Translations under genes and position numbers: made by a program
Source: Trissonchulus latispiculum
Taxonomy: Eukaryota; Nematoda; Enoplea; Enoplida; Ironidae
Assembly (NCBI GenBank): GCA_030248195.1
Contig: JASAND010028470.1
Coordinates: 35,635-99,634 of the forward strand
Reading direction: 5' to 3'
DNA: 64,000 nucleotides
Part shown: positions 2,376-60,616 of the stretch, one piece after another
How positions within the stretch are numbered: the first letter of the stretch is position 1
How the letters are laid out: every line of letters begins with the position of its first letter
The notes under the pieces: generated by a model
What the model was told of the DNA's origin: nothing
Database searches by the model: none
Seen by the model: the letters and a program-made list of their open reading frames with translations, nothing else

Positions 2376-2459
2376 TTATCCACTTTTTACATGTCGTTGA
2401 CATAAAAGCTTTAAAGAATCATTAAGCATTATATGTGCATTAAATACTCTGACTCACGT

Positions 2460-3175
2460 GTGTGGTTCTATGGCAAATTGGCTCAGTTCCACCCTGACAC
2501 CCCTCACACCAGACCGCTCCACAGCAAGTTAGGGTAAGTGGTTCTATGATAGAAGAATTTAGTTTTAGTTTTCCTCCCACCCCTACCCCACCACAGCACT
2601 CTACAGCCACTGTGAGCATGCACTTTTATGAGAAAAGTTGCTCAGCTCACATGAGGCTTTCATTTGGTACCAAATTTGTGACCACTTTTGAAAATTTTCA
2701 TTTTCGACCCAAAATCGCCTTAAGACCCCACCTCTACCCCAGCACAGCATTCTATAGCCATTTGGAGCATGCACTTTTATGAGAAAAGTTGCTCAGCTCA
2801 CTTGGGGCTTTCATTAGGTATATACCAAATGTGACCACTTTTGATAATTTTCATTTTCGACCCAAAATCGCCTAAGACCCCCATCCATACCCCAGCACAG
2901 CACTCTATAGCCACTTTGAGCATGCACTTTTATGAGAAAAGGTGCTCAGCTCGCTTAGGGCTTTCATTTGATACCAAATTTGACCACTTTTGAAAAATTT
3001 TAGTTTTGACCCAAAATCGCCTAAGTCCCCACCCCACCCCACCACAGCACTCTACAGCCACTTTGAGCATGCAGTTCTATGACAGAAGTTGCTCAGCTCG
3101 CTTAGGGCTTTCATTTGATACCAAATTTGACCACTTTTGAAAATTTTCATTTTTTAACCACATGACCTCCCACCT
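2460..3175. repeat. ~150-bp tandem array (about 4.5 units)
   Basis: The landmark GCTCAGCTC recurs at 2640, 2791, 2944 and 3091 (spacings 151, 153, 147). Each unit carries gggctttcatttg, accaaatttgacc and cacagcactctacagcc. The 147-bp spacing recurs in the second composite copy (16062 and 16209). Confidence 0.85.
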
Positions 3176-3177
3176 AC

Positions 3178-3640
3178 CTGACGCTCCAGATGGCAACGTG
3201 GAACCAGCTCAGCAAGATGGGTGAGTCCGACGGCAAAAGAGATGCCAGGAATGAGCTGGGCGCACCAGAAAACCCCTATAGACAAAGTTTTGAGAGGCTA
3301 AGTACAGTCCTGTATGGTGTTCCCGGAAGTCGGTACTGACCGGACCCTCCAGACGGCAAATTGGAACCAGCCCAGCAAGATGAGTGAGTCGGACGGCAAA
3401 ATGGAGACCGGGAATAAGCTGGGCGCACCAGAAAACCCCTATAGACAAAGTTTTGAGAGGCCAAGTAAAGCCTACTATGGACCTCCCGGAAGCGGTTACC
3501 GACCTGACCCCTCAGACGGTCAACTGGAACCAGCCCAGCAAATTGGGTGAATCGGGCAGCAAAACAGATAGCGAGAATCGATTCACCGTCCAAAAAAACC
3601 TTTATATGCAAGATTTGAGAAGTCTATCTTGAAAAATAAG
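3178..3640. repeat. 163-bp tandem array, copy 1
   Basis: GCTGGGCGCACC recurs at 3255 and 3418, exactly 163 bp apart. Because 163 is not a multiple of three, similar open frames shift register between units and are not evidence of coding. Confidence 0.85.
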
Positions 3641-4125
3641 CGAAAAAACTAAGTTCAAAGTCGGACCCAACATTCACCAACTTTGGCGGGCCACTGTGGC
3701 GCTGTGGCGCAACATATCAATAATCCGACTTCAAACGTCATAATCCGGATATATGTCCGTATCAACCATATATAACTTGTCTGGTTTGTATTTGCACAAA
3801 GAGCTGGAAAGAAGCTAATCCCAGGCATACTTTTGGCCATTTCGACGTTCTGAGCCGACTTTGTGGCGCCACTGTGGCGCTGCGGCGCACTGTGGCGCGG
3901 CGGCGACCACATATATCGAAAGTCAGTAACCTATATATATTGATGATATACCGCAATAGGTGTCTGAACTTCGCTACATTCTGTGAAAGAGGCTACAAAA
4001 TGATGACATACGAGGGTAAAACGGAGACACCGGGGAAAAAAACATCGCCGGCATAACTACCGGCAGGTGCAACTTTTTAACGGTAAGTGTTAGGGGGATG
4101 AAATTTTCCAATTATACTAAACTCG

Positions 4126-6578: not shown

Positions 6579-6820
6579 CGGATAAAACACAGGAAAACCA
6601 ATTGCTGCTCACTTTGTGGCACACATGCAATATACATGACCTCTCCAAATCCACCAGGTGGAGGTGAAATAGCTTTAGATTCTCCAACCGAAGTCAAAAG
6701 TCGATAAAATCCACTATTTGGATTCCTTCAACAACAAGAATAACAACAATGAATAATATTCCTCAAATATCGTTATATATCATTATCAATAATTAGTAAT
6801 AAAGGGCACTTCATGCAATG

Positions 6821-8196
6821 TATATATAGTCAAGCGGGGGAAAACCCATTTTAATATATATGCGGGAAAAAGCCCAACTCCAGTGAGGGCTTACCGGTAT
6901 GAGCTATATAGGAGTTTAATAGCCTATCTTGAAGAGCATCCAAAATCACCCTAGAGGCTGCATTATTGTCGCTCCCGCTGCTTCCCTGCAAATTTTTGGG
7001 AACTTTGAAATTTTCGAAAATTTTGGTCAATCCCAGTGCCGAAATTTGACAAACTTTGTCTGGTCACCCTGAACTACTGGAAAGACCTAGACCAAAGTGG
7101 ATTGTTTGTCATAGGGCATCTGTCATTTCGTAGGGCATCTGTTGCGCTTCATGGTGATATATGCCACACTGCTCTAACCCCTCCGGTGCGACCTGGGGGT
7201 GACCTAGAGTTGGCGGGAAAAACCCATTTTTCAAAATTGAATATTTTTGTAACCATTAGCAGGAAACCTTAAATAAACACATACGTGTGCTTAATAGAGA
7301 CTATTAATTAAATTAGTATAGGTTTTACCTAGCTTCTTTCCATTATGTGTGGTCCAGGTGGCCAAAATCTGGAATGGTGCCACTTCAAGCCAAATTTTTC
7401 AATTTCGTAAAAAATAGCGAATTTTTCACTAAAATAGGTCGGGTTTGGCTTTAAATACAATAAAAGCACGTTTTTTATGTGACAGGATGCTGAAAATGCA
7501 AAAATTAAGCAAATTTCAAAAATTTCCAAAACTTGCCTATGTTTACGTGTTAAACATTACAAATTTTTCAAAATTCAATTTTTCTTGAAATTTTTCAAAA
7601 ATGTTGGTTTTTTCGATGTAGACCTACTAAAAACAACCCGCGCTTTCGAATGGCACCGTCAAAATTGTTTGGCACGCCTCCAGCAAAAAATCCGGGTGGG
7701 TTTTTCCCGCATTGGGTTTGTTGCCGACACGAAAATCTTTAATTTCTCCATAACGACAGGGCGGCCTAGAGAGACAAACTATACCTCATTCGAAAGCTTA
7801 GGGCAAACCCTAACTGCTTACTTTAAACGGCATCACTGTGTCCAGTGCTTCACCGGTACCGCTATCATCCATCAATCAGCCTGGCAACGGTTTCACGCCA
7901 TTGATTGGGCCTAGAGGGACAAACTATACCTCATTCGAAAGCTTAGGACAAACCCTAATTGCTTACTTTAAACGGCATCACTGTGTCCAGTGCTTCACCG
8001 GTACCACTATCATCCATCAATCAGCCTGGCAACGGTTTCACGCCATTGATTGGGCCTAGAGGGACAAACTATACTTCATTCGAAAGCTTAGGGCAAACCC
8101 TAATTGAATATAGTATCAAAGTCGTGCTAGCCCAAACCAGTCTAAAGTTCGGTTCCAAGAAATAAAAAGAGGGTTTTCCCGCTTGACTATATATAG
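6821..8196. mobile_element. TIR element, intact copy (host-type element H)
   Basis: The left end TATATATAGTCAAGCGGG (6821) and the right end (…CCCGCTTGACTATATATA, to 8195) are inverted repeats of about 25 bp with one indel. Flanking ATGCAATG/ATGCCATC agree at 6 of 8. The interior includes a 145-bp tandem duplication. A second, disrupted copy spans 17998 to about 22000. No transposase frame is visible. Confidence 0.75.
7763..8115. repeat. 145-bp tandem repeat inside element H
   Basis: GGCCTAGAG recurs at 7763, 7908 and 8053 (exactly 145 bp). Each unit carries caaactatacctcattcgaa and gtgcttcaccggtaccg. The open frames across it are repeat-derived. Confidence 0.85.
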
Positions 8197-10713: not shown

Positions 10714-11428
10714 TTAAGTAACTTTCTAGCCTTTCTCTACAGTAAGATATTACCAATTTTCTTATTTTAGCGTCCAAAACTTGTCATTTTCCAAAAATCA
10801 AATAATCAATCGATTCTTGAGCTACGTATGCAAAACGCATGATTAAACCAAGTCAATACGAAGGTCTCACAGATGCCAATTATCTAAGACGTGGTCATCC
10901 TCCAACTGCTATCAAATGGGCTGCTAGCATAAGAAATGTAGTTTTCGCCTAAACACGACCAAATTGTTCTAGCGATTGTGGAACATTTAGTATGCATTTT
11001 GCAAATTTGTTTTACACAAAAATACCCCAGGACCGTTTTTAGTTGCCCCGATTGCTGCTTTCTAGCTAAGGTAGTCGCTTGCCAAATTTGAGAAAAATAG
11101 GCAAAACCAAGTTGCGCATACATTTTAGCTAACTTCTCCATTACGAAGGGCGACTTCGTAACAACTAAAAAAGGGTCCTCAGGTATTTGATAGAGATATC
11201 GACTATCGAGTGATATAATGGTTTCTCTCGAAAAAATTTACTTCAGTCTGCAGAAAATATGAAATATTGCATTCTTCAAAAATCCGTTAAAAATTTTTCG
11301 AAGTGCAAAATTAGTTTTATTGGATTCATTTAGAAAGAAAAATGGTAAGCTCCATGTTGATTTAAAGATGGCTTCTTAGCTCCAAGTAATGAATGAGTAA
11401 TCATGGTTCAAGGTTGATGTCTCCCAAA

Positions 11429-11790
11429 GGGAGGGGGGCGCATTGGGGCAAAATCCACAGTCACGGATTTCGCTCATTTTCACACACAATATGGATACGT
11501 ATGTTCCAAAAAACAAGACAAAAGAAATGAAACGGTGACAAAGATTGGAAAACTTGAGAATTTCTGTGATTCGCCCTCCAACGTCATGTGAAGACAGAAC
11601 GGCAGCCAAATGGGGGTCGACTAATATGGCAATTTATATAATGTTGTTGGTTGGCTAATATTTCAGGGTTAAAACGACTCCGGCATAGCTACTTATATAG
11701 TCGTTCGCAATGCAATCATCAATTGTGAACTTAACCATTTTGAGCTAACTGTGCGGTCAAAATTTAACTTGCTCTAACTTGTAGATATAG
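11429..11790. other. repeat debris, no gene
   Basis: Contains a motif (cggatttcgctcattttcaca, cut to the family core gctcattttcaca) shared with the ends of elements at 22555, 34118 and 42700. Nothing else is recognised. Confidence 0.35.
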
Positions 11791-17753: not shown

Positions 17754-18064
17754 GGTGATGCTGTCTGAAGCTGTTGCCTTGACTTCAGGTGAAGACGGCG
17801 TTCCTGCGTTCCCGTTCAGGTGAACTCAACAATAATATATTGCGTTGGGCATAAACCTTTCACGCAAGAACTGAAATATTGAAACCCAAAAGCTATACAA
17901 AGGTTTAAGCTAAACTTAAACTAGGCTAAGCTAAGCTTAGCTTTAAGCTTATATATTTCTTAAACTGCTAACAAACTTGCAACAGCAACTGAAAATATAT
18001 ATATAGCGCGGAGGGAAAACCCAGTCCGAGATGCGGGAAAATACCCAACGCCAGTGTGAGTCAG

Positions 18065-18490
18065 CATAGTTTCCTTGGGGGGGGGGGTATCCCGCCAAAA
18101 TTTTCGACCAACTAACTTTACCCTCCCCAGATTTTTTGACTTACCCTCCCTAGATTTTTTGACTTACCCTCCCCAAACTTTTGGCTACCCCCACCGAACC
18201 CCCCAAAGATTTTTGGACCCAAAAACTTAGCTAAATTTGGCCGAAAATGGTGTTTTTTTGAAAAATTTTTCTAAAATTTTGACCTAAAATCGCTTTAAAA
18301 CGGTGCAAAAACACCTAAAACGTTAAAAACAAGCCTTATTTTGATGAAAAAATGCTAGATTACAGAAAATTTTGAATTTGTTGCCATTTTTCGAAATTTC
18401 TGAGGTCCGAATTCTGGGGTGGGGGGTATCACATTTCGGAGGTCGACCAAGATTTACCCTCCCAGACCCAAAAGTTCCAGGGAAACTATG
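18065..18490. mobile_element. G-tract hAT-like MITE (family B), CATAGTTTCC ends
   Basis: The left end CATAGTTTCCTTGGGG and the right end GGAAACTATG are inverted. Flanks TGAGTCAG (18057-18064) and TGAGTCAC (18491-18498) agree at 7 of 8. The interior is made of C/G runs and A/T-rich spacers (ttttgaccaa, cgaaatttctgaggtccg), with no protein. Confidence 0.85.
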
Positions 18491-19010
18491 TGAGTCACCC
18501 ACATAGTTTCCTTTGGGGGGGTATCCCCCCAAAATTTTTGACCAATTTAAGCCCCCAGAATTTTTGACATACATACCCTCCCCCCAACTTTCGGCTACCC
18601 TCATAGTTTCCCTGGAACTTTGGGTCTGGGGGGGGGTAAATCTTGGGTGGTTGGTGGTCGACCCAAGAAATGTGATGGGGGGTACCCCCCCGACCCCCCC
18701 CCCCCAGAATTCGGACCTCAGAAATTTCGAAAAATGGCCTAAAAACACAAAATTTTCTGTATTTCAACGCTTTTTTCGTCAAAACAAGGCTTGTTTTTAT
18801 CGTTTTTGGCGTTTTTGCACCGTTTTAAAGTGATTTTCAGTCAAAATTTTAGAAAAATTTTTCAAAAAATTACCATTTTTCAGCCAAATTTAGCTAACTT
18901 TTTGGGCCCGAAAAAATCGCTGGGGGGTTCGGGGGGGGGGGGTAGCCGAAAGTTGGAAGGGAGGGCAAGTCAAAAATTCTGGGGGGGGGGGGTAAAATTG
19001 GTCAAAAATT

Positions 19011-19647
19011 GGCACTTATTTAGATGGGGGGGCGATTTTTTCGCCTTGGTCCCCCCTTATGGTTCGAAAAAATTTTTTGTCTCCGATTTGGCTGAGAAGT
19101 TGCCCTTAGGGTAAATCGAGGTCGCTGATTTCAAAAATCGAATCGAGAGATCGATCCGATCGATCGATCGATCAGTAGAATCGATCGATCAAAATCGATC
19201 AAAAAAATTTTTGTCTCCGATTTTCGCGAAAAGTCGCCCCTAGGTTAACTCGGGGACGCTGATTCCGAATCTGCACTCGAAATTTCATAAAAATCAATCG
19301 TTCGCCCGCAAAAATCGATTTTCATCGATTTTTCAAAAATTCGACAATAACTCGATTTTGGCAGCTCGGATCGAAATTTCGACTGCAGATTCGGAATCAG
19401 CGGCCGCGAATTACCCTAGGGGCGACTTTTCGCGAAAATCGGAGACAAAAAATTTTTTGATCGATTTTGATCGATTGTTTCTACTGATCGAGCGATCGAT
19501 CGGATCGATCTCTCGATTCGATTTTTGAAATCAGCGACCTCGATTTACCCTAAGGGCAACTTCTCAGCCAAATCGGAGACAAAAAATTTTTTCGAACCAT
19601 AAGGGGGGGACCCGAAAAAAATCGCCCCCCCCATCTAAATAAGTGCC
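19011..19647. mobile_element. long-arm foldback element with 8-bp target duplication
   Basis: Almost the entire 637 bp is one imperfect palindrome centred near 19329: for example gattccgaatctgca (19261) pairs with 19384-19398, and gtctccgatttggctgag (19079) pairs with 19563-19580. Arms are about 280 bp with a roughly 80-bp diverged centre. The perfect octamer CAAAAATT flanks both ends (19003-19010 and 19648-19655). Arms contain runs of GATC/CGAT (19140-19190). Confidence 0.9.
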
Positions 19648-19678
19648 CAAAAATTTTGGGGGGGGATACCCCCCCAAC

Positions 19679-20263
19679 CATAGGTGTAAGGTGGGGGGGG
19701 GGGGGGCGGGGGGGGGGGGGTAGCCCCCCCCAAGCCTTTGTTCAACCCTCCCCCAAAACTTTTTTGGGGGGGGAGGGGACGTCCCCCCCCCCAACTGGGG
19801 GGGGGGGGGGGGGGGGTAGTCGCGCCGAAGGCGCGAGAAATGGCCAAAAATTGGGTATTTTTTGGGTAAATTTTGTAAAAATTTTCAAAAATGTCCAAAT
19901 TTTTGGCTTAAATTGTTTATTGTTATGAGAAATACACGTTTTTAACTGTATTATGGATCTTATGACTCAATATTGTCTTTATTTTGGACTTGGAAACATG
20001 TTGGCAATCAAGTTTTTGAGTTTAAATGTCTAATGTTTCTAATTGTCTAATGTCCACTGTCTAATGTTAAAATTACTTTATGGTTAGATGTTTTTTATCA
20101 TTAGCAACGGCTGAAAATGCGATTTTTGGCATAAAAAATGAAAAATTTTTTTGAGGGAGGGTTGGGGGGTCCTGGGGAGGGGTTGGGGGGGTAGCCAGAG
20201 GGGGCCCCCCCAGAAAATGTTGGGGGGGAGCCTCCCCCACCCCAAATCTCCGTTACACCTATG
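19679..20263. mobile_element. third-level G-tract element, CATAGGTGTA ends
   Basis: CATAGGTGTAAGG at the left and TTACACCTATG at the right are inverted and bounded by the perfect octamer CCCCCAAC (19671-19678 and 20264-20271). The interior holds some of the longest G runs in the window (19694-19720, 19795-19816) and the stem CGCGCCGAAGGCGCG. Confidence 0.85.
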
Positions 20264-20607
20264 CCCCCAACCCCCCCCCCAAAGGAAACTATGGCTACGC
20301 CCCCGGAACCCCCCCCCAGCGATTTTTGGACACAAAAAGATTCATTCTTTTGAAGAAAAAAGGGCTAAATTACAGAAAATTGTGCATTTTGTGGTCATTT
20401 TTCGAAATTTCTGAGGTCCGAATTCTGGGGGGGGGGTTGGGGGGGAGGGTACCCCCATCACATTTCTTGGGTCGACCGCCAACCTTCCAAAATTTATATA
20501 CCCCCCCAGACCCAAATTTCCAGGGAAACCATGGTCACCCATATGAGCTAGATCGGATTTTAATAGCCTATCTCAAAGAGCGTCCAAAACAACCATAGAG
20601 GGTGTAC

Positions 20608-21163
20608 CATAGGTGTACCACCTGTTTGGGTTGGGGGGGGGGAGTAGAAGGTCCAAATTCGGCTCGGGGGACCCCACCCAAATCCGAAATTTGGGGGGGG
20701 GGGACCCCCCCTAAACTGTACCCAAGTTTTTTTGGCTAAAAATGCTCCTTTTTCGATGTACGGTACATAAAACATACTCAAAAGCTTCTGTCGATAGTTT
20801 TCGTATGCGAAAATAGGGCTTGAAAATTGACAAATTTGTGCTAGAATATGCCTAAATTAGCTCAGATTGTGGTTTATAATTGCGTATATTACCTTTTAAT
20901 TGCTATAAATAACCATCTTTAGCTCTTTGTATGTGATTTATAGCCATTTTTTCGAATTTTTTGCAAAAATTTTCAGAAATTGCAAAAAAGTTTTTCAAAA
21001 ATTTAGCATTTTTTACCTGGTTTGGACCCAATTTTAGGGGGGGAGGGGGGTTTGAGCTCGGCTTGGGGGGGGGAGTAGTTGAGGTCGGGTAGGGGGGGAG
21101 GGGGGTCTGGCCTCTCCGTGGGGGGGTCTCACAGGGGGCAAACTGTAGCCTGGTTCACCTATG
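20608..21163. mobile_element. G-tract element, CATAGGTG ends
   Basis: CATAGGTGTACCACC and GGTTCACCTATG ends are bounded by the perfect octamer GGGTGTAC (20600-20607 and 21164-21171). It sits inside element H copy 2 after accatagag. Confidence 0.88.
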
Positions 21164-21522
21164 GGGTGTACGTATTACTGTAGCTCCAGTCCAGCCGACT
21201 TTTAGCAATTTTTTGGGATTGAAAATGTTGGTCGCAACATGGCGATCAGACAAGGTCAACTTTTTGGGGGTCACCCTGAACTACTGGAAAGACAAAGACC
21301 TGGTCCAAAAACTATTACAGTTTCACAAAGGATATGCCTCGAACTTCATGATGGTGTATGCAATTTGGCTCTAGTGCCTGTGGTGCGACCTGGGACGACC
21401 TGGACTAGGCGGAAAAAACCCATGTGCGAGAAAAAACCCAAATTTCAAAATGAAATTCTTTTCTAACCATTAGCAGCAAAGGAAAAACTCTTGCATTCCT
21501 TAGCTCAATAGAGCCTTCTGAT

Positions 21523-21963
21523 CATAGGTGTACCTGGAGGGGGAGGGGGGGGGGAACCCCTCCCCCCAAATGGAAAAGTGCCGACCCCACCCTCGAAATT
21601 TTGGAGGCAGACCCCACCCCCAAATGGCCAAATCCCAGACCCCACCCACCCAAATTTGCCAGACCCCACCCTCAAAATTTTGGAAATTTTACTTCAAAAT
21701 TAGTAAAAATTCGAAATTTTTGCAAAACATCCAAGCTTTTTCAAACAAATGAGCAAAATGAGGAATATTGTTGATTTTTTTAGTTGCAAATAACGCTTTT
21801 TTAGCAAATTCGCAAATTTTGTCTAAATTTTTGACTAAAAAATTTTTTACCCCCCCCCCCAAATTCGATATTTCCGGACCCCACCCCACCTCAAAACGGC
21901 TGACCACACCCACCCTAATTTCGGCTACCCCCTCCCCCAACGTTTTCTCAAGGTACACCTATG
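21523..21963. mobile_element. G-tract element, CATAGGTGTACC ends
   Basis: CATAGGTGTACCT and AGGTACACCTATG are perfect 13-bp inverted ends. Flanking octamers CTTCTGAT (21515-21522) and GTTCTGAT (21964-21971) agree at 7 of 8. The interior reads C-rich on the left and right with an AT-rich centre. Confidence 0.88.
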
Positions 21964-27802: not shown

Positions 27803-27860
27803 GTCTCCGTAGCTCTTGCCTAGTGCGCAAAATGTCGTGGGTTCGAGTCCCACCGGGGGT
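27803..27860 (+). repeat. tRNA-derived SINE head / tRNA-like pseudogene
   Basis: A perfect B box GGTTCGAGTCC (27840-27850), a 5-bp T-stem (gtggg/cccac), an A-box-like TAGCTCttGcctAG, and an acceptor stem gtctccg/cgggggt with wobble pairs. The interval is only about 58 nt, too short for a full anticodon arm, and it lies between Polinton remnants. The reverse strand yields the well-known spurious peptide pattern PGGTRTHDIL that marks such tRNA-like repeats. A hairpin (ggtccgaatgtttcggacc) follows. Confidence 0.65.
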
Positions 27861-27974
27861 CCGAATGTTTCGGACCTTCGGTGGTACATAACTTTCTTCT
27901 TCTTTCTCATTTATATTTGTAGAACAAGTGCGATGGCCCTTGAGCTGCTGTTCCTCCACTGTGTTTCTACTTTG

Positions 27975-28590
27975 CGTGTGTTCACGTATAGCAGAGGCAG
28001 ATCTTTGGAATAGTTCTTCACTTTCGAAACACTAAGAAACTTGTTCAGTTTTAGGCGAAACATTTGAGTAAATCTTTGAACGACAACAGCATTTTCGTCA
28101 CCCTGAGCTATCCTATGCTTTATTTGTAAATCAGACAACATTTTCTGAAATAGTTTTGACATAAAATTGCGTCTTTGATCGGTTCTCTGGACATGAGGCC
28201 TTCCCTTGAGTTGGCTCATGACCTTACCAAAAGCAGTCTTTGTTGATTCAACGGATTCCCTTCCTAGTGGTGATACAGCTGCTTAGCGAAATCACAGCAA
28301 GCAGCTTTTTTGGTTTGCTTGCAGTTACAAGAATGACATCGGCCTCCCATTGCAGGTTACTGTCCGAAAGAATAATTCTAGGTCTTGTAAGCCTCTTGGA
28401 CGTCTGGCGGTTCAAATTAAAAACATATTGCTGTTCAAGCCATCCTGTTACCTCCGCTAGAGTTACATCTGTGAAACCTTTAGACTGTACTGCCTTAAAA
28501 ATAGTGGTGATGAATAAGCACCAGGTTGTCCGGGTGTGTAAAATAACGTCTGCAGTTGCTTCTCTGCAAAAGACGACAACATTAGTCTCT
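27975..28590 (-). pseudogene. Polinton (retroviral-type DDE) integrase remnant
   Basis: Minus-strand frames carry, in order, a Thr/Leu-rich segment with EVTGWLEQQYVFNL, then RPRIILSDSNLQWEADVILV, then after a stop at 28248 a second frame with FGKVMSQLKGRP and ENAVVVQRFTQMFRLKLNKF. These fit the K-x-W-L-x-x-Q-x-x-Y-x-L-H, QWQADLVDM and VVERFNRTLKxRMxRYF landmarks of Polinton integrases. At least two frameshifts or stops separate the parts, so it is inactive. A SINE sits just downstream. Confidence 0.65.
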
Positions 28591-34117: not shown

Positions 34118-36182
34118 TTTAACGGGGGGGGGTCCATCTTTTGGTCATTTTTTCGACTTTTTCTGGGTCGCTCATTTTTACAAATTTCATAGTCCAAACT
34201 GTATATTTTAACGAGTTTTTGACATTGAAGTCGTAAGTCTTACGGTTGTTGAATAATTTCACATCAAAGCTGAGATTTTATGTGTTAAACATAGGAAATG
34301 TGAAAAGTTGTCACTTTTTCACGTGCGCTAGAAAAATCTCGCGAATGGCAAAAAGGATCCGCCCAAACTTTTTATCATATGGGTCTTATCTTGATTACCC
34401 CCCCCCCCCCAGTACTCAAAATCCTTAAAACTTGACCAAATGAGCTAAAATTTGGTGTGGGTATGTTTTCGACCACGCTGAGTTCAAATATCGCAAAATT
34501 TTTCGATTTCGCGGAATTCGAAATTTTTCGATTTGTAAGGGGGGACCAAGGGAAACCGAAAAATTTTTGTCTTCGATTTTGCTGAAAAAATGTATATAGG
34601 GGTTTTCGGGATCGTAGAACACGAATCTGAAGTCGGTGTTTCGATTCAGCTTTCCGTTAGCTCAGTATAAGCTAAAGATTTAAGCTTAAGATGTAAGCTT
34701 GTACTGAGCGAACGAAAAGCTGAGTCGAAAAACGGACTTCAGATTCGTGTTCTACGACCCGGAAAACCCCTATATACATCTTTTCAGCAAAATGTAAGAC
34801 AAAAAATTTTTCGGTTTCCCTTGGTCCCCCCTTACAAATCGAAAAATTTCGAATTTCGCGAAATCGAAAAATTTTGCGATATTTGAACTCAGCGTGGGCG
34901 AAAACATACCCACACCAAATTTTAGCTCATTTGGTCAAGTTTTAAGGATTTTTAGTACTGGGGGGGGGGGGGTAAACGAGATAAGACCCTATCATATTTT
35001 TGCCATGTTTCCGAACTGTGATTTGTAGGAATCAGAATTTTGATTTAGGTCTTTAAAAAATTTTAATGAATTTTTGAAATATTAAAATTTGGCACCAAAT
35101 TTAAGAGACATCTAATTTCAATACTTCAAAAATTCATTAAAAATTTTAAAGACCTAAATCAAAGTTCTGATTCCTACAAATCACAGTTCGGAAACATGGC
35201 AAAACAAGTAGGCCCCAAAATGGGGCATTATTCCTCCGTAGACCTGCAAAAATTCAGTTGTAGCCTATTGCACCTCTTTCTCACTCATAAAATGCAATCT
35301 TTCTCGAAACGTTGTTAATATATTCTTTCCTCCAGTTGTATTCAAGATTCGACTAGTTGATGTTAATTGACCAACCATTCAGGAGTGCATTTTGGTTGCT
35401 ACCAATTTGATGAAGACCAGGTAATCATAATAAAAATACCAGTACAGCAATGTAACTGGAATGCTCAAATTTATGATTTGTCATTAGCCAACTTCGAATA
35501 AGCTGTTTCTGTACGCTGGAATACCGTTAATGGCAGCAACAAATTTCCAGTTGTTTTTACGTCTCCCACTTGTCGTCACCTAGCATTCACCGAATGCTAA
35601 GCTGCACCAATCGATGAGCAGTTCAGCTCAAAGCCATTCGGTCCTCATCATCTAATTGCACCATTTGTACTACTCCTAAGCAGTATTGTTGCTAACAATA
35701 TGCCGTCCTTTGACTGCTGACAGTCTAAGACTGCGCTAAAACAGTCGTTGCCACAACTTAAATAGTAGGCTTAAACCTAATTTGCATATTGCAATGAAAG
35801 CAAAAAAGTCTCCCTAAGCTAGCCCTGTGCTGAAGATAGGGCTTCTAAATGGAGAACTGACTCAACACACACTAAACATACCAATTCCCGATTTATACAT
35901 TCCGGCTCCAGCCGGAATAAATATGACATAAAGTTTGGGCGGGTCCTATTTGCCATTCGCGAGATTTCTCTGGCGCACGTGAAAAAGTGACAACTTTTCA
36001 CATTTCCTTATGTTTAACACATACAATCTCAACTTTGATGTCAAATTACTCAGCAGCCGTAAGACTTACGACTTTAATTTCAAAAACTTGTTAAAATATA
36101 CAGTTTGGATTATGAAATATATAAAAATGAGCGACATCGGAGAAAGTCGAAAAAATGACCAAAAAATGGACCCCCCTTTAAA
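34118..36182. mobile_element. TIR element with ~280-bp inverted repeats
   Basis: The left end TTTAACGGGGGGGGTCCATC and the right end GATGG-type mirror (…atggaccccccTTTAAA) are inverted. Similarity continues for about 280 bp (for example gtaagtcttacggttgtt against cagccgtaagacttac; gtgcgctagaaaaatctcgcg against cgcgagatttctctggcg). CAGC, or CAGCTTT, flanks both ends (34114 and 36183). The interior is non-coding and carries the foldback element 34381-34989. Termini are related to the 42180-42800 family. Confidence 0.8.
34381..34989. mobile_element. long-arm foldback element with 8-bp target duplication
   Basis: The sequence is an almost complete palindrome centred near 34684: gggtcttatc (34381) pairs with gataagaccc (34980-34989), and acgaatctga (34621) pairs with tcagattcgt (34739). 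The perfect octamer TATCATAT flanks it (34373-34380 and 34990-34997). Arms share ccttggtccccccttac and a gtcttcgattttgctga-type motif with the foldback at 19011-19647. Confidence 0.9.
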
Positions 36183-36285: not shown

Positions 36286-38518
36286 CAGAGATGAAACCGG
36301 GTCACTATTTGCTGACCCGGTGACCCGGTGACCCGGTATTTCTGAAAATTCAGGTTTAAGCTTGGACAAATTAAAAATACATATATTGGGGTGCGGCGAG
36401 TGGTACTTAACCTTTTTATACATTTTTGGCGTCTAAACTAAGAAGTTGGGCAAAATTTTTGCTTTCTTTAAAGTACGTTGGAAAGTGTGAAAATATTGTA
36501 AGTAAGCCGGAAAAAAATCAAAACTGCTTTCCACGATTTCGGATTCAATATAATGTGAAGTAAACTACATAGATTTTTGAATCAAACAAATTGGAACAGA
36601 ATATTTTGCCAAAGCCATCACATCACATCATCTAATTCCAATTATAGAGCTTTACATTAGCACTTTTGTGTTTTATCATTATATATTTTAGTAATATATT
36701 TTATTTAGTTGTATGGTTGAGGTTTCACTCAGCGGAGATGAAATATTCTTGCTTATGGCTAGGATTCAGACAATATATTCTATGAATAAAATCAATTACA
36801 AGTCCATTAATTCCTAAAGATAGTTAGCCATAACAATTGCAAAAAATGCAGAGCAAAGCTCACAATCTGTAAACCGTGTTTTGCTGACTCTTTTCTTCTT
36901 ACCGAGATTTGAAACACACAGGGCCGTATTCACCAAGCTCTGGTAAGCTACCAGTGGTAGCTTTTAAAGGTTACCAGTGGTTAAACCAATTGGTTACTTA
37001 CAGAGACTCATTTCACCAAACTTTTCTAACGAGTGGTAGCATACCACTGGTAGCTTACAGAGAGTTATTTTGCTAACCAGCCTTGGGCGTGGTTTACAGT
37101 GTATATTCTGGGTGTAAATAACAGTTTTCTTGTTAATTTTTCGATAGAAAGGACCAAAAATGCTTTCGCTGCAGTAGCACTTCTGTTTTATTTATAAGTT
37201 TTATGTTTTATATTTCTTACGTTCCACGCGAAAATTATAATATCATACAAACTTTCTTTTCGAAGTAAGATCCTTAATTTGTCAAATGATATTTGAAGTA
37301 GAGTTGGGACCGGTTCCAATTTTCAAAACCGGTTCCGGTTCCGGTTCTAGAGTACGGTTCTAGTAATTTTTTGTCCTCGAAATAAATTTTCACTGTGTTC
37401 TCTTAAACTGTAAGGAACTGAAGAATACCATCAAGAGAAAGTTGTGGGTCTTGATGAGAAAATTCGAATGACTTAAGTCTGTCCGTGGAGAGTGGCCACA
37501 ATGCAAGTTGTAGTGGACTAAAGCTAATTTTTCCAAAACTCACATTTTCACGCGGCGACTTTTCTAAAATGTTTTCTAGGCTAAATGATACCTACAACTG
37601 TAACTGTAACTGTCCTTGTATGAGTGTGTCTATGTACCAAAAATAGGGGCAGTCTACCCCAATGGGAGTCAATCTTAAGAACCCAACTGACAGAATAATT
37701 GAAAGTAATACAAACAAATAGTAAAACGACCAACAAAAAATTTTAAAATTTGCAGGAAATAATCTAATCAAACTTAATTAATCGTCAATAATTAAATAAA
37801 TGATACAATTAATAAAAGATGTGATTTCGTTAAATTATAATAAATATTAAAATACAATTTCAAAAACAGTGTTAGTTCTAAGGAAAACATTGTTCAGCCT
37901 TTAGCCTCTGTAAGTAACCACTGGTTAACCACCGGTAACTTAACCAATTGGTTGTGAATACGCTCGGCTAACCAATTGGTTTTCTTACCGTCTGTAACCC
38001 TACCACTGGTAAGGCTACCACTGGTAGGGCTACCATGACTTGGTGAATACGGCCCACAGCCGTCTCCAAAAATGATTAGCATCAGCGAAGAATCACTTAC
38101 AGTAGATGGAGCATGGAGAATTTTAGATTTTAAACTGAAAATTTCAGACTCTCAGGGCCCATGTAATAATATTCATTTTCTAGTTAAGATTAAACGCAAT
38201 CATTTTAGTTTCAAACCTATCTAAGCTTGACATGGCATTACAATTATTATGAGGACACTACTACAGCGACAAGCATTTAAAAAGTACACGATTAAGCTAA
38301 GAATATTTCAGTTGCTAGTTTTTTGAGAATTATTGTAGTTTTCAATTGGCAAAAACTGGTAAAAACTCTTTAAGATATGACATAACAGCAAAAAAATTCC
38401 CCCAATCAGAAATACCGGGTCAAGACCGGGTCAGAGCTCCTGACCCGGTGACCCGGTGACCCGGTCCATATAGTGACCCGAACTGGCCCGGTGACCCGGT
38501 GACCCGGTTTCATCTCTG
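36286..38518. mobile_element. hAT-like element with GACCCGGT subrepeats
   Basis: The ends CAGAGATGAAACCGGGTCA and TGACCCGGTTTCATCTCTG-type are inverted, and a perfect octamer CTGCACAT flanks them (36278-36285 and 38519-38526). Both ends carry tandem gacccggt (36318-36340 and 38417-38510). The CAGAG start and 8-bp duplication fit hAT. It is interrupted by a Harbinger-like element and contains no transposase. Confidence 0.9.
36921..38055. mobile_element. PIF/Harbinger-like non-autonomous element, nested in hAT
   Basis: The ends GGGCCGTATTCACCAAG and CTTGGTGAATACGGCCC are perfect inverted repeats over 17 bp. A 3-bp duplication ACA flanks the element (36918-36920 and 38056-38058). Subterminal ctaccagtggtag-type palindromes occur at both ends. 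The GGGCCGTATTCAC end and 3-bp duplication suit the PIF/Harbinger group. No transposase. Confidence 0.85.
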
Positions 38519-43141: not shown

Positions 43142-43145
43142 TTAA

Positions 43146-44129
43146 GGTGGTGATTCCTTTTGGGCACATATTGTGGGTTGACGGCTCATACCAAAATGAA
43201 ATTTGATGAAACTTTCCAAAATAAGTTCATTTGGTGTTCTAACACCCTCCGCGCAATCCCGCTTCAAAATTTCGAGATTTCCGTTCAGGGACGGTTTTCG
43301 CCAATTTCTGACAGTTGAGCAGCAACTGCATAGTTGTGACTATATTCATTTGAAAGATCTCGTTGAGCTCTACATTTTTGCTTTTGGAAGCAACTTTCTA
43401 GCTCTTCTTTACAGTGAGATATAGCCGATTTTCTTATTTTAAAGTGGAAAACTTGTCATTTTTGCATAAATCAAATAATCCACAATTTCTTGAGCTATGC
43501 AAACCGTAAAATTAAACTAAGGGTGTCGATTTGAAGGTCTCGTCGAGGCCGATTATCCGAGGTATGATAATCTTCCAACTGCTATCCCGTGAGTTGCTAT
43601 CATAAGAAATGTAGTTTTTTGTATAAACATTACCAAATTTTTTCCAGCGATTGTGGAGCATTTACTACGCAAGCTAGAGGGTTGCCGCTTACTGGACGTG
43701 TTTTACACGAAAATACCCAGGGACCCTTTTTAGTTGCTCCGATTGCTGATTTGTAGCTAAAGTGGCCGCTTGCTTAAGTTGGGAAAAGTAGGCAAAATCC
43801 AGGTTGCGCAAACATTTTAGTTAATTTCTTCATAACGAAGAGTGATTTCATGATAATTAAAAAAGGGTCACCAGCTACTTGATAGTGGAATCGAATGATG
43901 TAGCCGATGCCTCACGAAAAAATTTACTTTAGTACTCTAAAAACTCTGGAAAATTAAAGTACATCAAAAATCTAGTAAAATAGTTTCCGAAGACTGAAGT
44001 TAGTTTCATTGCATTCATTAGAAAGAGAAAATGTTAAGCTCCATTTTGATCTAAAGATAGTTTCTTAACTCCAAGTAATGAATGAGTAATAAGGGTTTAA
44101 AGTTGATGTCTCCAAAAGAAATCATCACC
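43146..44129 (+). mobile_element. TTAA-flanked element T, copy 2 (intact)
   Basis: GGTGGTGATTCCTTTTGG at the left and CCAAAAGAAATCATCACC at the right are bounded by TTAA (43142-43145 and 44130-44133). The 984-bp interior matches 8818-11428 (minus its insertion) and, reversed, 56529-57509. It is non-coding. TTAA duplication is typical of piggyBac, but the end sequence is not a canonical piggyBac CCYT end. Confidence 0.88.
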
Positions 44130-44219
44130 TTAAATAGCACATTTTTTGACAGAAAGTTTTATTTTTGGTGGCTCAATCCCTCCCCCAAACCTAGCTCTTT
44201 GTCGAGAAAGTTTACGGAT

Positions 44220-49081: not shown

Positions 49082-49832
49082 CAGAGCTGGAAGTGGGTCA
49101 AACTTTTTGACCCGCACCCGACCCGTGACCCACAGACCCTTGACCCTACCCACTTGACCCACACCCGTGACCCGCGGCCAATTATTTGACCCACATGACC
49201 CACTTTTGATTGAAGATGCTCTAAGGCTAAATCTTTGTCAATAATAAAATAATGGTGATTTTTAGGCGTTTAAAACAGTTGAGCGTGACTGCAGCTTGAT
49301 AAAAAGCAACTGAATTGAATAGAATCTTTTATAATTTTCGTAATTAAAATCAAAGGTAGAAAAATAGAAAATTAGCAAATACAAAATTTGATCCAGTAGG
49401 AGAATCCTTAAGGAGTCGACGGTGGTAATTGTTTGTTACATATAAAACGTCAGAGCATGTTACGGGAAATCTTGCAATCTGTTTTAACATTGTATACATA
49501 CTATTCTAACTTGCATATATTTTTGCATGTGCCATATGCTTACAGAAATCGAGAAATCACACCAGTGCTAGATGGCAAATACTGTCGTTTCTCAAAATAT
49601 TGACACCCCTTTGTGGATGCTGGGATAATTGTGGCCAAATTTTATGTAAAATACAAAAATAGTCAGTGTTAGAATTCGGCGAAGCCGAAAATTTTTTTGA
49701 GATTTTAATGCTAAAATCTAATTTTTTGAGCCTCGGCTGACCCACTTTTGACCCACCACTGACCCGCGGGTCACACGTGTTGACCCACACCCGACCCGAC
49801 CCGCGGGTACCCGTGACCCACTTCCAGCTCTG
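49082..49832. mobile_element. hAT-like element with TGACCC subrepeats
   Basis: The ends CAGAGCTGGAAGTGGGTCA and TGACCCACTTCCAGCTCTG are perfect 19-bp inverted repeats, flanked by the perfect octamer GATCTGAC (49074-49081 and 49833-49840). Subterminal gacccg/gacccac units occur at both ends. The AT-rich interior is non-coding. The same terminal type appears at 62160-63382. Confidence 0.95.
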
Positions 49833-56524: not shown

Positions 56525-56528
56525 TTAA

Positions 56529-57509
56529 GGTGGTGATTCCTTTTGGAGACATCAACTTTGAACCCTTATTACTCATTCATTACCTGGAGTTAAGAAGCCA
56601 TTTTTATATCAAAATGGAGCTTAACATTTTTTGTTTCTAATAAATGCAAGAAAACTAGCTTCAGTTTTCGGAAACTATTTTACTGCATGTTCGAAGTACT
56701 TTAATTTTCCAGATTTTTTGCAGACTGAAGTAAATTTTTTGTGAGCCATCGATTATACCATTCGATACCTCTATCAAATACCTGGGGACCCTTTTTTAGT
56801 TATTATGAAACCGCTCTTCGTAATGGAGATATTAGCTAAAATGTATGCGCAACCTGGATTTTGCCTACTTTTCCCAACTTTAGCAAGCGACCACTTTAGC
56901 TAGAAAGCAGCAATCGGGGCAACTAAAAAAGGGTCCCTGGGTATTTTTGTGTAAAACATGTCTAGTAAGTGGCAACTCTCTATCATGCATAGTAAATGCT
57001 CCACAATCGCTGGAAAAAATTTGGTCATGTTTTTGCAAAAACTACATTTTTTATGATAGCAGCATACAAGATAGCATTTAGAAGATTATAACGACACGCA
57101 TAATCGGCCTCGACGGGACCTTCAAATTGACGCCATTCATTTGATTTTACGGCTTGCGTAGCTCAAGAAACGGCGGATTATTTGATTTCTGCAAAAATGA
57201 CAAGTTTTCAACGCCAATATAAGAAAATCAGTTATATCTCACTATAGAGAAACGCTAGAAAGGTGCTTCAAAAAGCAAAAATGTAGAGCTCAACAAGATC
57301 TTTCGAATGAATATAATCATAGCTATGCAACTACTGCCTAATTGTCAAAAAGCTGCAAAAACCGCCCTGAACGGAAACGTTGAGGTTTTGAAGCGGGATT
57401 GCGCGGAGGGTGTTAGAATGCTAAAAGAACTTATTTTGGAAAGTTTCATGAAATTTCATCCTGATTTGGACCGTCAACCAATAATATGTGCCCAAAAGGA
57501 ATCACCACC
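56529..57509 (-). mobile_element. TTAA-flanked element T, copy 3 (inverted)
   Basis: GGTGGTGATTCCTTTTGG and CCAAAAGGAATCACCACC ends are perfect 18-bp inverted repeats between TTAA (56525-56528 and 57510-57513). The interior matches copies 1 and 2 in reverse orientation (e.g. gcgggattgcgcgg at 57393 against ccgcgcaatcccgc at 43250). Confidence 0.9.
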
Positions 57510-57587
57510 TTAAACTTTTTAAATTAATTTTTGAAAATTTTAAATTTGAATCCGTATCAAGACTGCTGACTGCTGACTGCAAGATCC

Positions 57588-59417: not shown

Positions 59418-59882
59418 CTATTGAATAAATGAAATTTAATTACAATTAGAACAAACAAAGAACAACAATTAATAAGTTAAGCACAAGCCAAATCTTAACA
59501 GTCTCTTCACGAAGCGATCTGGGTGCTTATGCCATAACTTCTGCTGGGTGATTACAGATTTGAATACTGTCAACACTATATACTCAACTCAACAGACGCT
59601 GCCAAGACATCGCAAATCCCAGACGAATTCCTATCAGCCGAGATATGCCGTCGTCTGTGCTTAAAACATGCGCCTATTTTTAACAAATACAATATATTAT
59701 ATTTTAACCTGCAGAGATATATCGTTGTACAATAAAAAGTACAACTCAAAACTCATTTAGCGCGTTTGGCTAAGACTGTAGAAGCCCTAGGCTTGCAGCA
59801 TACAATACAGAAGTATGCTATAATGAATCTGATTTTGCTTCGTAAAAATTGACTTAAAGCTTAACGTCACCACATTATATAC

Positions 59883-60073
59883 CTTTTCAACAGTATTGCA
59901 TCCATGGTAAGGCACTTGTATTGAAAATTTTTGACTAAAATTAACTTCCTTATAACAACCGTCCTTTTTGTAACTGCCCTCGGGATAAATAACGCCAGAA
60001 AAATCTTCATCGATGCTGGTAAAATGAATCACCATATAGTCCTTGAGACATACTAGCTGGGCACGAATTTCTC
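59883..60073 (-). CDS. ZP-domain protein, upstream exon (start of ZP-N)
   Basis: Acceptor ttttatatttgcag at 60074 and donor AAG|GTATAT at 59882. It carries VCLKDYMVIHFTSIDEDFSG followed by VIYPEGSYKKDGC and FSIQVPYHGCNT. This fits ZP-N: Cys-x-x-x-x-M-x-V-x-F, a G-x-I-Y strand, Cys, then P-x-x-x-C-x-T. ZP proteins polymerise in extracellular coats, cuticles or apical matrices. The signal peptide and any further N-terminal domains must lie above 60074 but were not identified. Confidence 0.7.
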
Positions 60074-60616
60074 CTGCAAATATAAAAGAACATATGACAC
60101 TAACATTTTAATGACCGAAAAACTTGGAATCACCAATTGAGGCTGTTTTACAACGAGCTTCAAGAGCGCTCACAGTTTAGGTTAGTTAATCAGCTCAGGG
60201 ACTCAGGTTAGTTCAGGACTGCTGCCCGTACGCTCTCTCCTGGTTCGGAATGGGCCTTTGACCTAGAAATGCATGATTTGCATTATTTCATTATAAATTC
60301 ACGGACTGTTTCTTTCACGGATCTGTTTACCAGTTTAGTCAATTTCCTTGCTGTTGTTTTAATTATCATAAGCAAGAGTTTACAATAGGAATTAGGAAGA
60401 GTAAACCATGAGCTCTTATTAATGTAGTAAGCTTGCAATATGCTCGAAAGTAGAAACATTAAGGACGCAATCTGGCTTCTGACTGTGCAAACCGTGCTAC
60501 GTTAACATTTTTCATCAAAGGGTGTTTTCGACAAATTAAATACTGTAGTTCCTTGAGCCAGGAAAGGCGTACAGCAGTAATTTTTTATATCACTATTTTG
60601 CGGAGCAGGTTCCCTA
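60074..60616. other. no further exon recognised upstream of ZP gene
   Basis: Unique sequence without a clear start codon exon or signal-peptide frame. A local cagg(tt)agtt duplication occurs at 60178-60215. Confidence 0.35.

What the first reader, a model, noticed from the sequence alone, without database searches (positions are those of the whole stretch)
18065..21963. Four-level nesting of G-tract hAT-like elements, with readable target duplications
Direct reading shows element H copy 2 hit by 18065-18490 (TGAGTCA, 7/8), 18502-20533 (GTCACCCA), 20608-21163 (GGGTGTAC) and 21523-21963 (TTCTGAT, 7/8). Within 18502-20533 sits 18602-20293, and within that sit 19011-19647 (CAAAAATT) and 19679-20263 (CCCCCAAC). 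Most duplications are perfect octamers, so the ends are certain and the order of events can be reconstructed. The elements share CATA(G) termini and long G runs rather than a protein. The 8-bp duplication suggests hAT transposase; the family itself is not one I recognise.
Basis: partly seen in the sequence, partly recalled or inferred. Interest (0 to 1): 0.8.

Follow-up and report, generated by a model that had tools for sequence, protein, structure and literature searches.

The report
Nested miniature DNA transposons, self-targeting
Seven small protein-less jumping genes have landed on and inside one another in a large eukaryotic genome, each leaving an eight-base footprint; this is real and readable but of a familiar kind, and the enzyme that moves them was not found.

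Summary
The host repeat has uninterrupted copies elsewhere. Copies of four families in the same 734-Mb genome carry 8-bp duplications: perfect in 19 of 33 (E), 23 of 30 (G), 14 of 19 (Hh) and 8 of 10 (family of A). So these are real nested insertions of short non-autonomous DNA transposons (MITEs), not an assembly accident.

The hAT reading is only partly supported. E lacks CATAG ends: it is a 637-bp near-palindrome ending GGCACTTATT, closer to the Merlin description. hAT domains exist in the genome (113 matches), but none of 40 sampled 3' tails carries these termini. One P-element model found nothing, without a working control. Merlin and MULE searches did not complete. The partner transposase is unidentified.

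Sites are enriched for G/C runs (which the CATAG elements carry) and, for E, for A/T stretches near RAAWWTTY: a plausible reason for the pile-up. New families of a known kind.

The parts
18065..18490 (+). Element A, 426 bp, family 1 (CATAGTTTCC...GGAAACTATG), inserted in the host repeat
   Evidence: Octamers TGAGTCAG/TGAGTCAC 7/8; of 12 other family stretches fetched 10 have both ends: 8 perfect 8-bp duplications, 9 at 7/8 or better
18502..20533 (+). Element B, family 1; own sequence 18502-18601 plus 20294-20533, interrupted by D
   Evidence: Octamer GTCACCCA 8/8; aligned to A
18602..20293 (-). Element D, family 1, inverted relative to A and B, inserted in B; itself holds E and F (about 454 bp without them)
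   Evidence: Octamers GCTACCCT/GCTACGCC 6/8; 86% identical to A on the opposite strand over 295 columns
19011..19647 (.). Element E, 637 bp, near-palindromic, ends GGCACTTATTTA, inserted in D
   Evidence: Octamer CAAAAATT 8/8; full length against its own reverse complement at 89%; of 40 loci 33 full copies, 19 perfect 8-bp duplications
19679..20263 (+). Element F, 585 bp, CATAGGTGTAAGG...ACACCTATG, inserted in D
   Evidence: Octamer CCCCCAAC 8/8; relatives with perfect 8-bp duplications in L002 and L005; no survey of its own
20608..21163 (+). Element G, 556 bp, CATAGGTGTACC...GGTTCACCTATG, inserted in the host
   Evidence: Octamer GGGTGTAC 8/8; 30 copies (this one included), 23 perfect 8-bp duplications
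21523..21963 (+). Element Hh, 441 bp, CATAGGTGTACC...GGTACACCTATG, inserted in the host
   Evidence: Octamers CTTCTGAT/GTTCTGAT 7/8; of 20 other copies fetched 19 counted, 14 perfect 8-bp duplications
17980..18064 (+). Host repeat left of A; continues at 18499-18501, 20542-20607, 21172-21522 and from 21971
   Evidence: Joined host aligns across the joins to window 6700-7330 and to L060
6860..7305 (+). Uninterrupted second copy of the host repeat (empty sites for A/B, G and Hh); limits approximate
   Evidence: Alignment of joined host, small gaps next to the G and Hh joins

Best explanation
18065-21963 is an island of nested MITEs: short DNA transposons without genes, cut and pasted in trans by transposases that cut target DNA with an 8-base stagger. 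At least two kinds are present: CATAG-ended families with G/C-run interiors (A/B/D; F; G; Hh) and a foldback element E with GG ends. Shown: ends, duplications, empty sites, recurrence across the genome. Inferred: piling up follows from target choice. E lands often in A/T stretches near RAAWWTTY, and such a stretch lies beside the C run near the family-1 end. The CATAG families land often beside G/C runs, which they themselves carry. So each insertion adds new targets. Also inferred: the CATAG families are driven most likely by a hAT transposase (about 0.45) and E more likely by a Merlin-type one (about 0.4); neither enzyme has been tied to these ends.
For: Octamers in the window. Perfect 8-bp duplications: E 19 of 33, G 23 of 30, Hh 14 of 19, family 1 8 of 10; at each other length from 4 bp up at most one perfect match per family, and at 3 bp 3 of 30 for G and 1 of 19 for Hh. 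Empty host site. Removing the insert restores a stretch that matches a known element across the join at 9 of 30 G and 10 of 33 E sites. Eleven of 106 TSD-selected complete elements contain another one. Within the TSD plus 6 bp on each side, runs of 5 or more G or C: G 11 of 23, Hh 4 of 14, E 6 of 19, family 1 2 of 8, against 3.5% of window 20-mers; A/T motif at E sites 12 of 19 against 13.7%. hAT domains present.
Against: No transposase with these ends was found: 0 of 40 hAT tails. CATAG is not a usual hAT start (recalled). The target background is this window alone, and copies were the best-scoring ones, so availability and preference are not separated. Of full-length copies, 14 of 33 E, 7 of 30 G, 5 of 19 Hh and 2 of 10 family 1 lack a perfect octamer. 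Of these, 4 E, 3 G, 4 Hh and 1 family-1 copy match at 7/8; 10 E, 4 G, 1 Hh and 1 family-1 copy match at 6/8 or less. Seven further E loci, one Hh and two family-1 loci were not counted because both ends were not recognised.
Confidence: 0.85

Rival explanations
1. The CATAG families belong to the P superfamily, which also makes 8-bp duplications, has CA...TG ends and forms MITEs.
For: Anopheles P elements and P-MITEs are flanked by perfect 8-bp duplications (PMC1562414, passages). CA...TG ends of P and its GC-rich target are recalled. G targets here are GC-rich (median 57.5% in 40 bp, against 39.7% in the window outside the nest).
Against: P transposase model PF21787: 0 matches, 9 of 9 candidates scored; but nothing rang in the controls either, so absence is not shown.
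Confidence: 0.15
2. The whole nest B-D-E-F is an old composite that amplified as a unit, so the nesting happened once.
For: Other contigs show E with F-type or family-1 sequence next to it.
Against: The duplications and positions differ. E sits in family 1 in L010 with AAAAATTC and in L047 with AAATTTTC, against CAAAAATT here; in L003 and L005 E lies beside G sequence; E sites are spanned by family 1 in 4 and by F in 6 of 33.
Confidence: 0.04
3. All seven, E included, are moved by one transposase of an undescribed superfamily with an 8-bp stagger.
For: Shared duplication length, shared islands and no partner found.
Against: E and the CATAG families share no termini and have different target sequence; shared stagger alone is weak.
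Confidence: 0.06
4. Assembly artefact: collapsed or chimeric G-run region.
For: Long G runs are hard to sequence; run lengths may be wrong (general knowledge).
Against: Exact octamers at exact ends, empty host copies, and the same families with their own octamers on tens of other contigs.
Confidence: 0.02

Closest known systems
hAT MITEs (e.g. MITE-like BuT2 copies in Drosophila willistoni; PMC3942097, passages)
   Same: Short, gene-less, short TIRs, 8-bp duplications
   Different: There only 24 copies, and their ends match a full-length hAT element; here first-look candidates run to thousands and no hAT gene with CATAG ends was found in 40 of 113 tails. CATAG plus G runs is not a hAT signature that I know (recalled)
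P-MITEs of Anopheles gambiae (PMC1562414, passages)
   Same: 8-bp duplications, unrelated interiors between shared ends, several families
   Different: There the ends derive from known P elements; here the P transposase model found nothing, without a working control
Merlin (PMC8101967, passages)
   Same: Element E: conserved 5'-GG-3' ends, 8-bp duplication, long inverted repeats
   Different: Transposase not seen; the Merlin model search did not complete. E's arms run almost the full length
Nested MITE multimers of grasses (recalled; one search gave a listing only, no paper opened)
   Same: MITEs inserted in MITEs through shared target preference
   Different: Those are mostly TA/TAA-targeting Stowaway/Tourist types (recalled); here 8-bp duplications and G/C-run or A/T-stretch targets

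Membership tests
MITE (non-autonomous TIR DNA transposon) | Short, TIRs, no coding capacity, constant duplication length, many copies | tested here: met
   426-637 bp (B and D without their inserts 340 and about 454), TIRs; first-look candidates 2390 to 3777 for Hh, family 1 and G, of which only 40 each were scored; 8-bp duplications. No Pfam search was run on the elements' own reading frames; gene-lessness rests on length
hAT superfamily (CATAG families) | 8-bp target duplication | tested here: met
hAT superfamily (CATAG families) | hAT transposase in a full-length relative with the same ends | tested here: inconclusive
   113 hAT domain matches; 40 tails read 0.8-0.9 kb downstream (two shorter, 0.45 and 0.57 kb), none with these ends, best 9 of 12 or 9 of 10 bases; some of the 40 are near-copies of each other; 73 matches not read
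P superfamily (CATAG families) | P transposase in the genome | tested here: inconclusive
   PF21787: 0 matches, no control rang
Merlin (element E) | GG termini and 8- or 9-bp duplication | tested here: met
   GGCACTTATT ends, 19 of 33 perfect 8-bp; definition from PMC8101967
Merlin (element E) | IS1595-type DDE transposase with these ends | not tested
   PF12762 search did not complete
MULE | MULE transposase; usually 8-11-bp duplication (recalled) | not tested
   PF10551 search did not complete (asked once)

The most novel reading that the evidence does not exclude
The CATAG G-tract families belong to no described superfamily: an 8-bp-stagger transposase that prefers G/C runs and recognises CATAG ends. 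Together with the foldback element E it would form a self-feeding nest, in which every insertion creates new preferred targets, so that the elements pile up on themselves and spare the rest of the genome.
Probability: 0.12. Interest if true: 0.55.

Novelty: new member of a known kind. Interest (0 to 1): 0.3.

Why it matters
The nest gives an unusually legible record of successive transposition events. Families with thousands of first-look candidates, and G copies only about 1% from their majority, make target choice testable in one genome. If self-targeting stands after proper controls, it is a simple way for transposons to multiply while sparing genes.

Tried and rejected
Composite amplified as a unit: rejected because E has different octamers and positions in other copies. 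Assembly artefact: rejected by empty sites and recurrence. A tie to hAT through the ends of hAT genes: 40 of 113 tails read, none fits. G/C runs of 8 or more do occur in 5 of the 40 tails (L133, L138, L139, L141, L144), which speaks mildly for nearness of such elements to hAT genes. In L144 (C16516) an F-type end begins about 0.6 kb past a hAT domain, but its interior points away from the gene, so I read it as a neighbour and not as the end of that gene's element. Window reading frames for transposases: 33 frames scanned of the 160 of 75 aa or more listed, only weak hits, none hAT. A homologue search with the longest window frame (212 aa of it) found nothing at E 0.01 or better. Paper searches for the end motif and for nested MITEs: 28 papers hold the motif, 10 listed, none about transposons by title; 9 listed; none; 10 of 18 listed; 4 listed; I saw listings only and no description of these families. 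Other paper searches. Dating the order of A against B by overlapping octamers fails: both orders give the same sequence. The F and A survey found one full-length copy each and two of 12, because alignments break in G runs; A was redone by end pairs, F was not. The notes' RAAAWTTY is mended here to RAAWWTTY after the column counts. The output was cut and that does not list all matches.

Full report
What is there. The window is part of an unnamed assembly of 733,804,655 bases in 21,732 contigs, by size a eukaryote. Between 18065 and 21963 seven elements sit in or on one another: A, B, D, E, F, G and Hh. Flanking octamers match 8/8 for B, E, F and G, 7/8 for A and Hh, and 6/8 for D. A, B and D are one family (CATAGTTTCC ends; D inverted; 86% identity A to D). 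F, G and Hh start CATAGGTGTA with different interiors. E is different: 637 bp, an almost full-length palindrome (89% against its own reverse complement), ends GGCACTTATTTA.

Empty sites. With A, B, G and Hh taken out, the host sequence aligns across the joins to a second copy at window 6700-7330 and to L060, with small gaps beside the G and Hh joins. With D taken out, B reads on as A does at the same place. Copies elsewhere tell the same: after removal of the insert, 9 of 30 G sites and 10 of 33 E sites are spanned by a match to one of the seven elements.

Genome-wide duplications. E: 40 loci fetched, 33 full length, 19 perfect 8-bp, 4 more at 7/8, 10 at 5/8 or less; in two of those ten, L018 and L040, a perfect octamer lies at a further E-type end 35-44 bp on. 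G: 30 loci, 30 full (the window copy included), 23 perfect, 26 at 7/8 or better. Hh: 20 loci, 19 counted, 14 perfect, 18 at 7/8 or better. Family 1: 12 loci, 10 with both ends, 8 perfect, 9 at 7/8 or better; the tenth has a perfect 7-bp repeat. At each other length from 4 to 12 (4 to 10 for family 1) there is at most one perfect case per family; at 3 bp G has 3 of 30 and Hh 1 of 19. Copies were the best-scoring ones, not a random sample. F was not surveyed on its own; F-type elements with perfect octamers occur in L002 and L005. Among 73 CATAG-type end pairs in the 48 loci then held, 14 match at 7 or more of 8, against 4 at length 6, 4 at length 7 and 1 at length 9 by the same one-mismatch rule.

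Age. Median divergence from the family majority is 0.9% for G (29 copies) and 3.0% for E (33); the window copies are 1.8% and 2.4%. Among the 40 best-scored places each, Hh copies are 91-94% and family-1 copies 81-90% identical to the window copy. This agrees with a young E inside an older D. The forced order is: host, then A, B, G and Hh in unknown order; B, then D, then E and F in unknown order.

Why they nest. E duplications read about RAAWWTTY by column majority. Such a stretch beside a C run lies at family-1 ends, e.g. CCCCCCAAAATTTTTGACC in B. E has hit nearly the same spot of family 1 in L047 with an octamer shifted by one base (my reading). Within the TSD and 6 bp on each side, runs of 5 or more G or C occur in 11 of 23 G, 4 of 14 Hh, 6 of 19 E and 2 of 8 family-1 sites, against 2066 of 59680 window 20-mers; only sites with perfect octamers were used. 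Three of 64 sites contain the CATAGG end of another element (one-sided binomial P 0.003). The background is one window, so mere abundance of such targets in islands is not excluded.

Who moves them. hAT dimerisation domains: 113 matches, several in long open frames. I read the 3' tails of 40 of them, 0.8-0.9 kb each with two shorter; none has these ends, best partial matches 9 of 12 or 9 of 10 bases; 5 of 40 hold a G/C run of 8 or more. P (PF21787): 0 matches, no control rang. Merlin and MULE: not answered. The Merlin description (GG ends, 8- or 9-bp duplication, TIRs of 24-462 bp; PMC8101967, passages) fits E. By the Repbase rule for non-autonomous elements (same duplication length, positions 1-11 aligned with at most one mismatch; PMC4455052, passages) Hh, G and F go together; family 1 and E do not join them (my count on the ends).

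Verdict. A well-read, real nest of MITE families that I could not match to a described one; ordinary in kind, with an open question about the transposase.

Noticed in passing
window 36286-38518: Candidate element of 2,233 bp with ends CAGAGATGAAAC (12/12) and octamer CTGCACAT: hAT-like by recalled ends.
   Followed up: no
window 49082-49832: Candidate element of 751 bp with ends CAGAGCTGGAAG (12/12) and octamer GATCTGAC.
   Followed up: no
window 34381-34989: Palindromic element with GGGTCTTATCT ends and octamer TATCATAT; like E in build.
   Followed up: no
window 22059: CATAGGTGTGGCTG start of a further CATAG family, complete copies of which occur in L012, L052 and L076; its other end was not recognised in the window.
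   Followed up: no
L071, L095, L096: Elements inserted exactly in the CATAGG end of another element, so the octamer contains it.
   Followed up: partly
window 43142-44133 and 56525-57513: 1-kb dispersed repeat at 86%, with a third relative at 10716-11430.
   Followed up: no
window 59790-60107 (-): Weak cuticlin N-terminal hit, E 3e-4, below the Pfam cut-off; perhaps a nematode or other animal genome.
   Followed up: no
window 27914-28282 (-): Weak integrase core hit, E 9e-5, below cut-off; likely a retroelement scrap.
   Followed up: no
window 27803-27861 (+): tRNA match at 29.4 bits, just over the Rfam gathering score of 29; possibly a SINE or pseudogene.
   Followed up: no
L103, L104, L105, L111, L116: 3' tails of hAT genes in this genome hold degenerate short repeats (GGGTCA, GGGTACCC, CGGCTCC, CCGGAA types) rather than G runs.
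   Followed up: no
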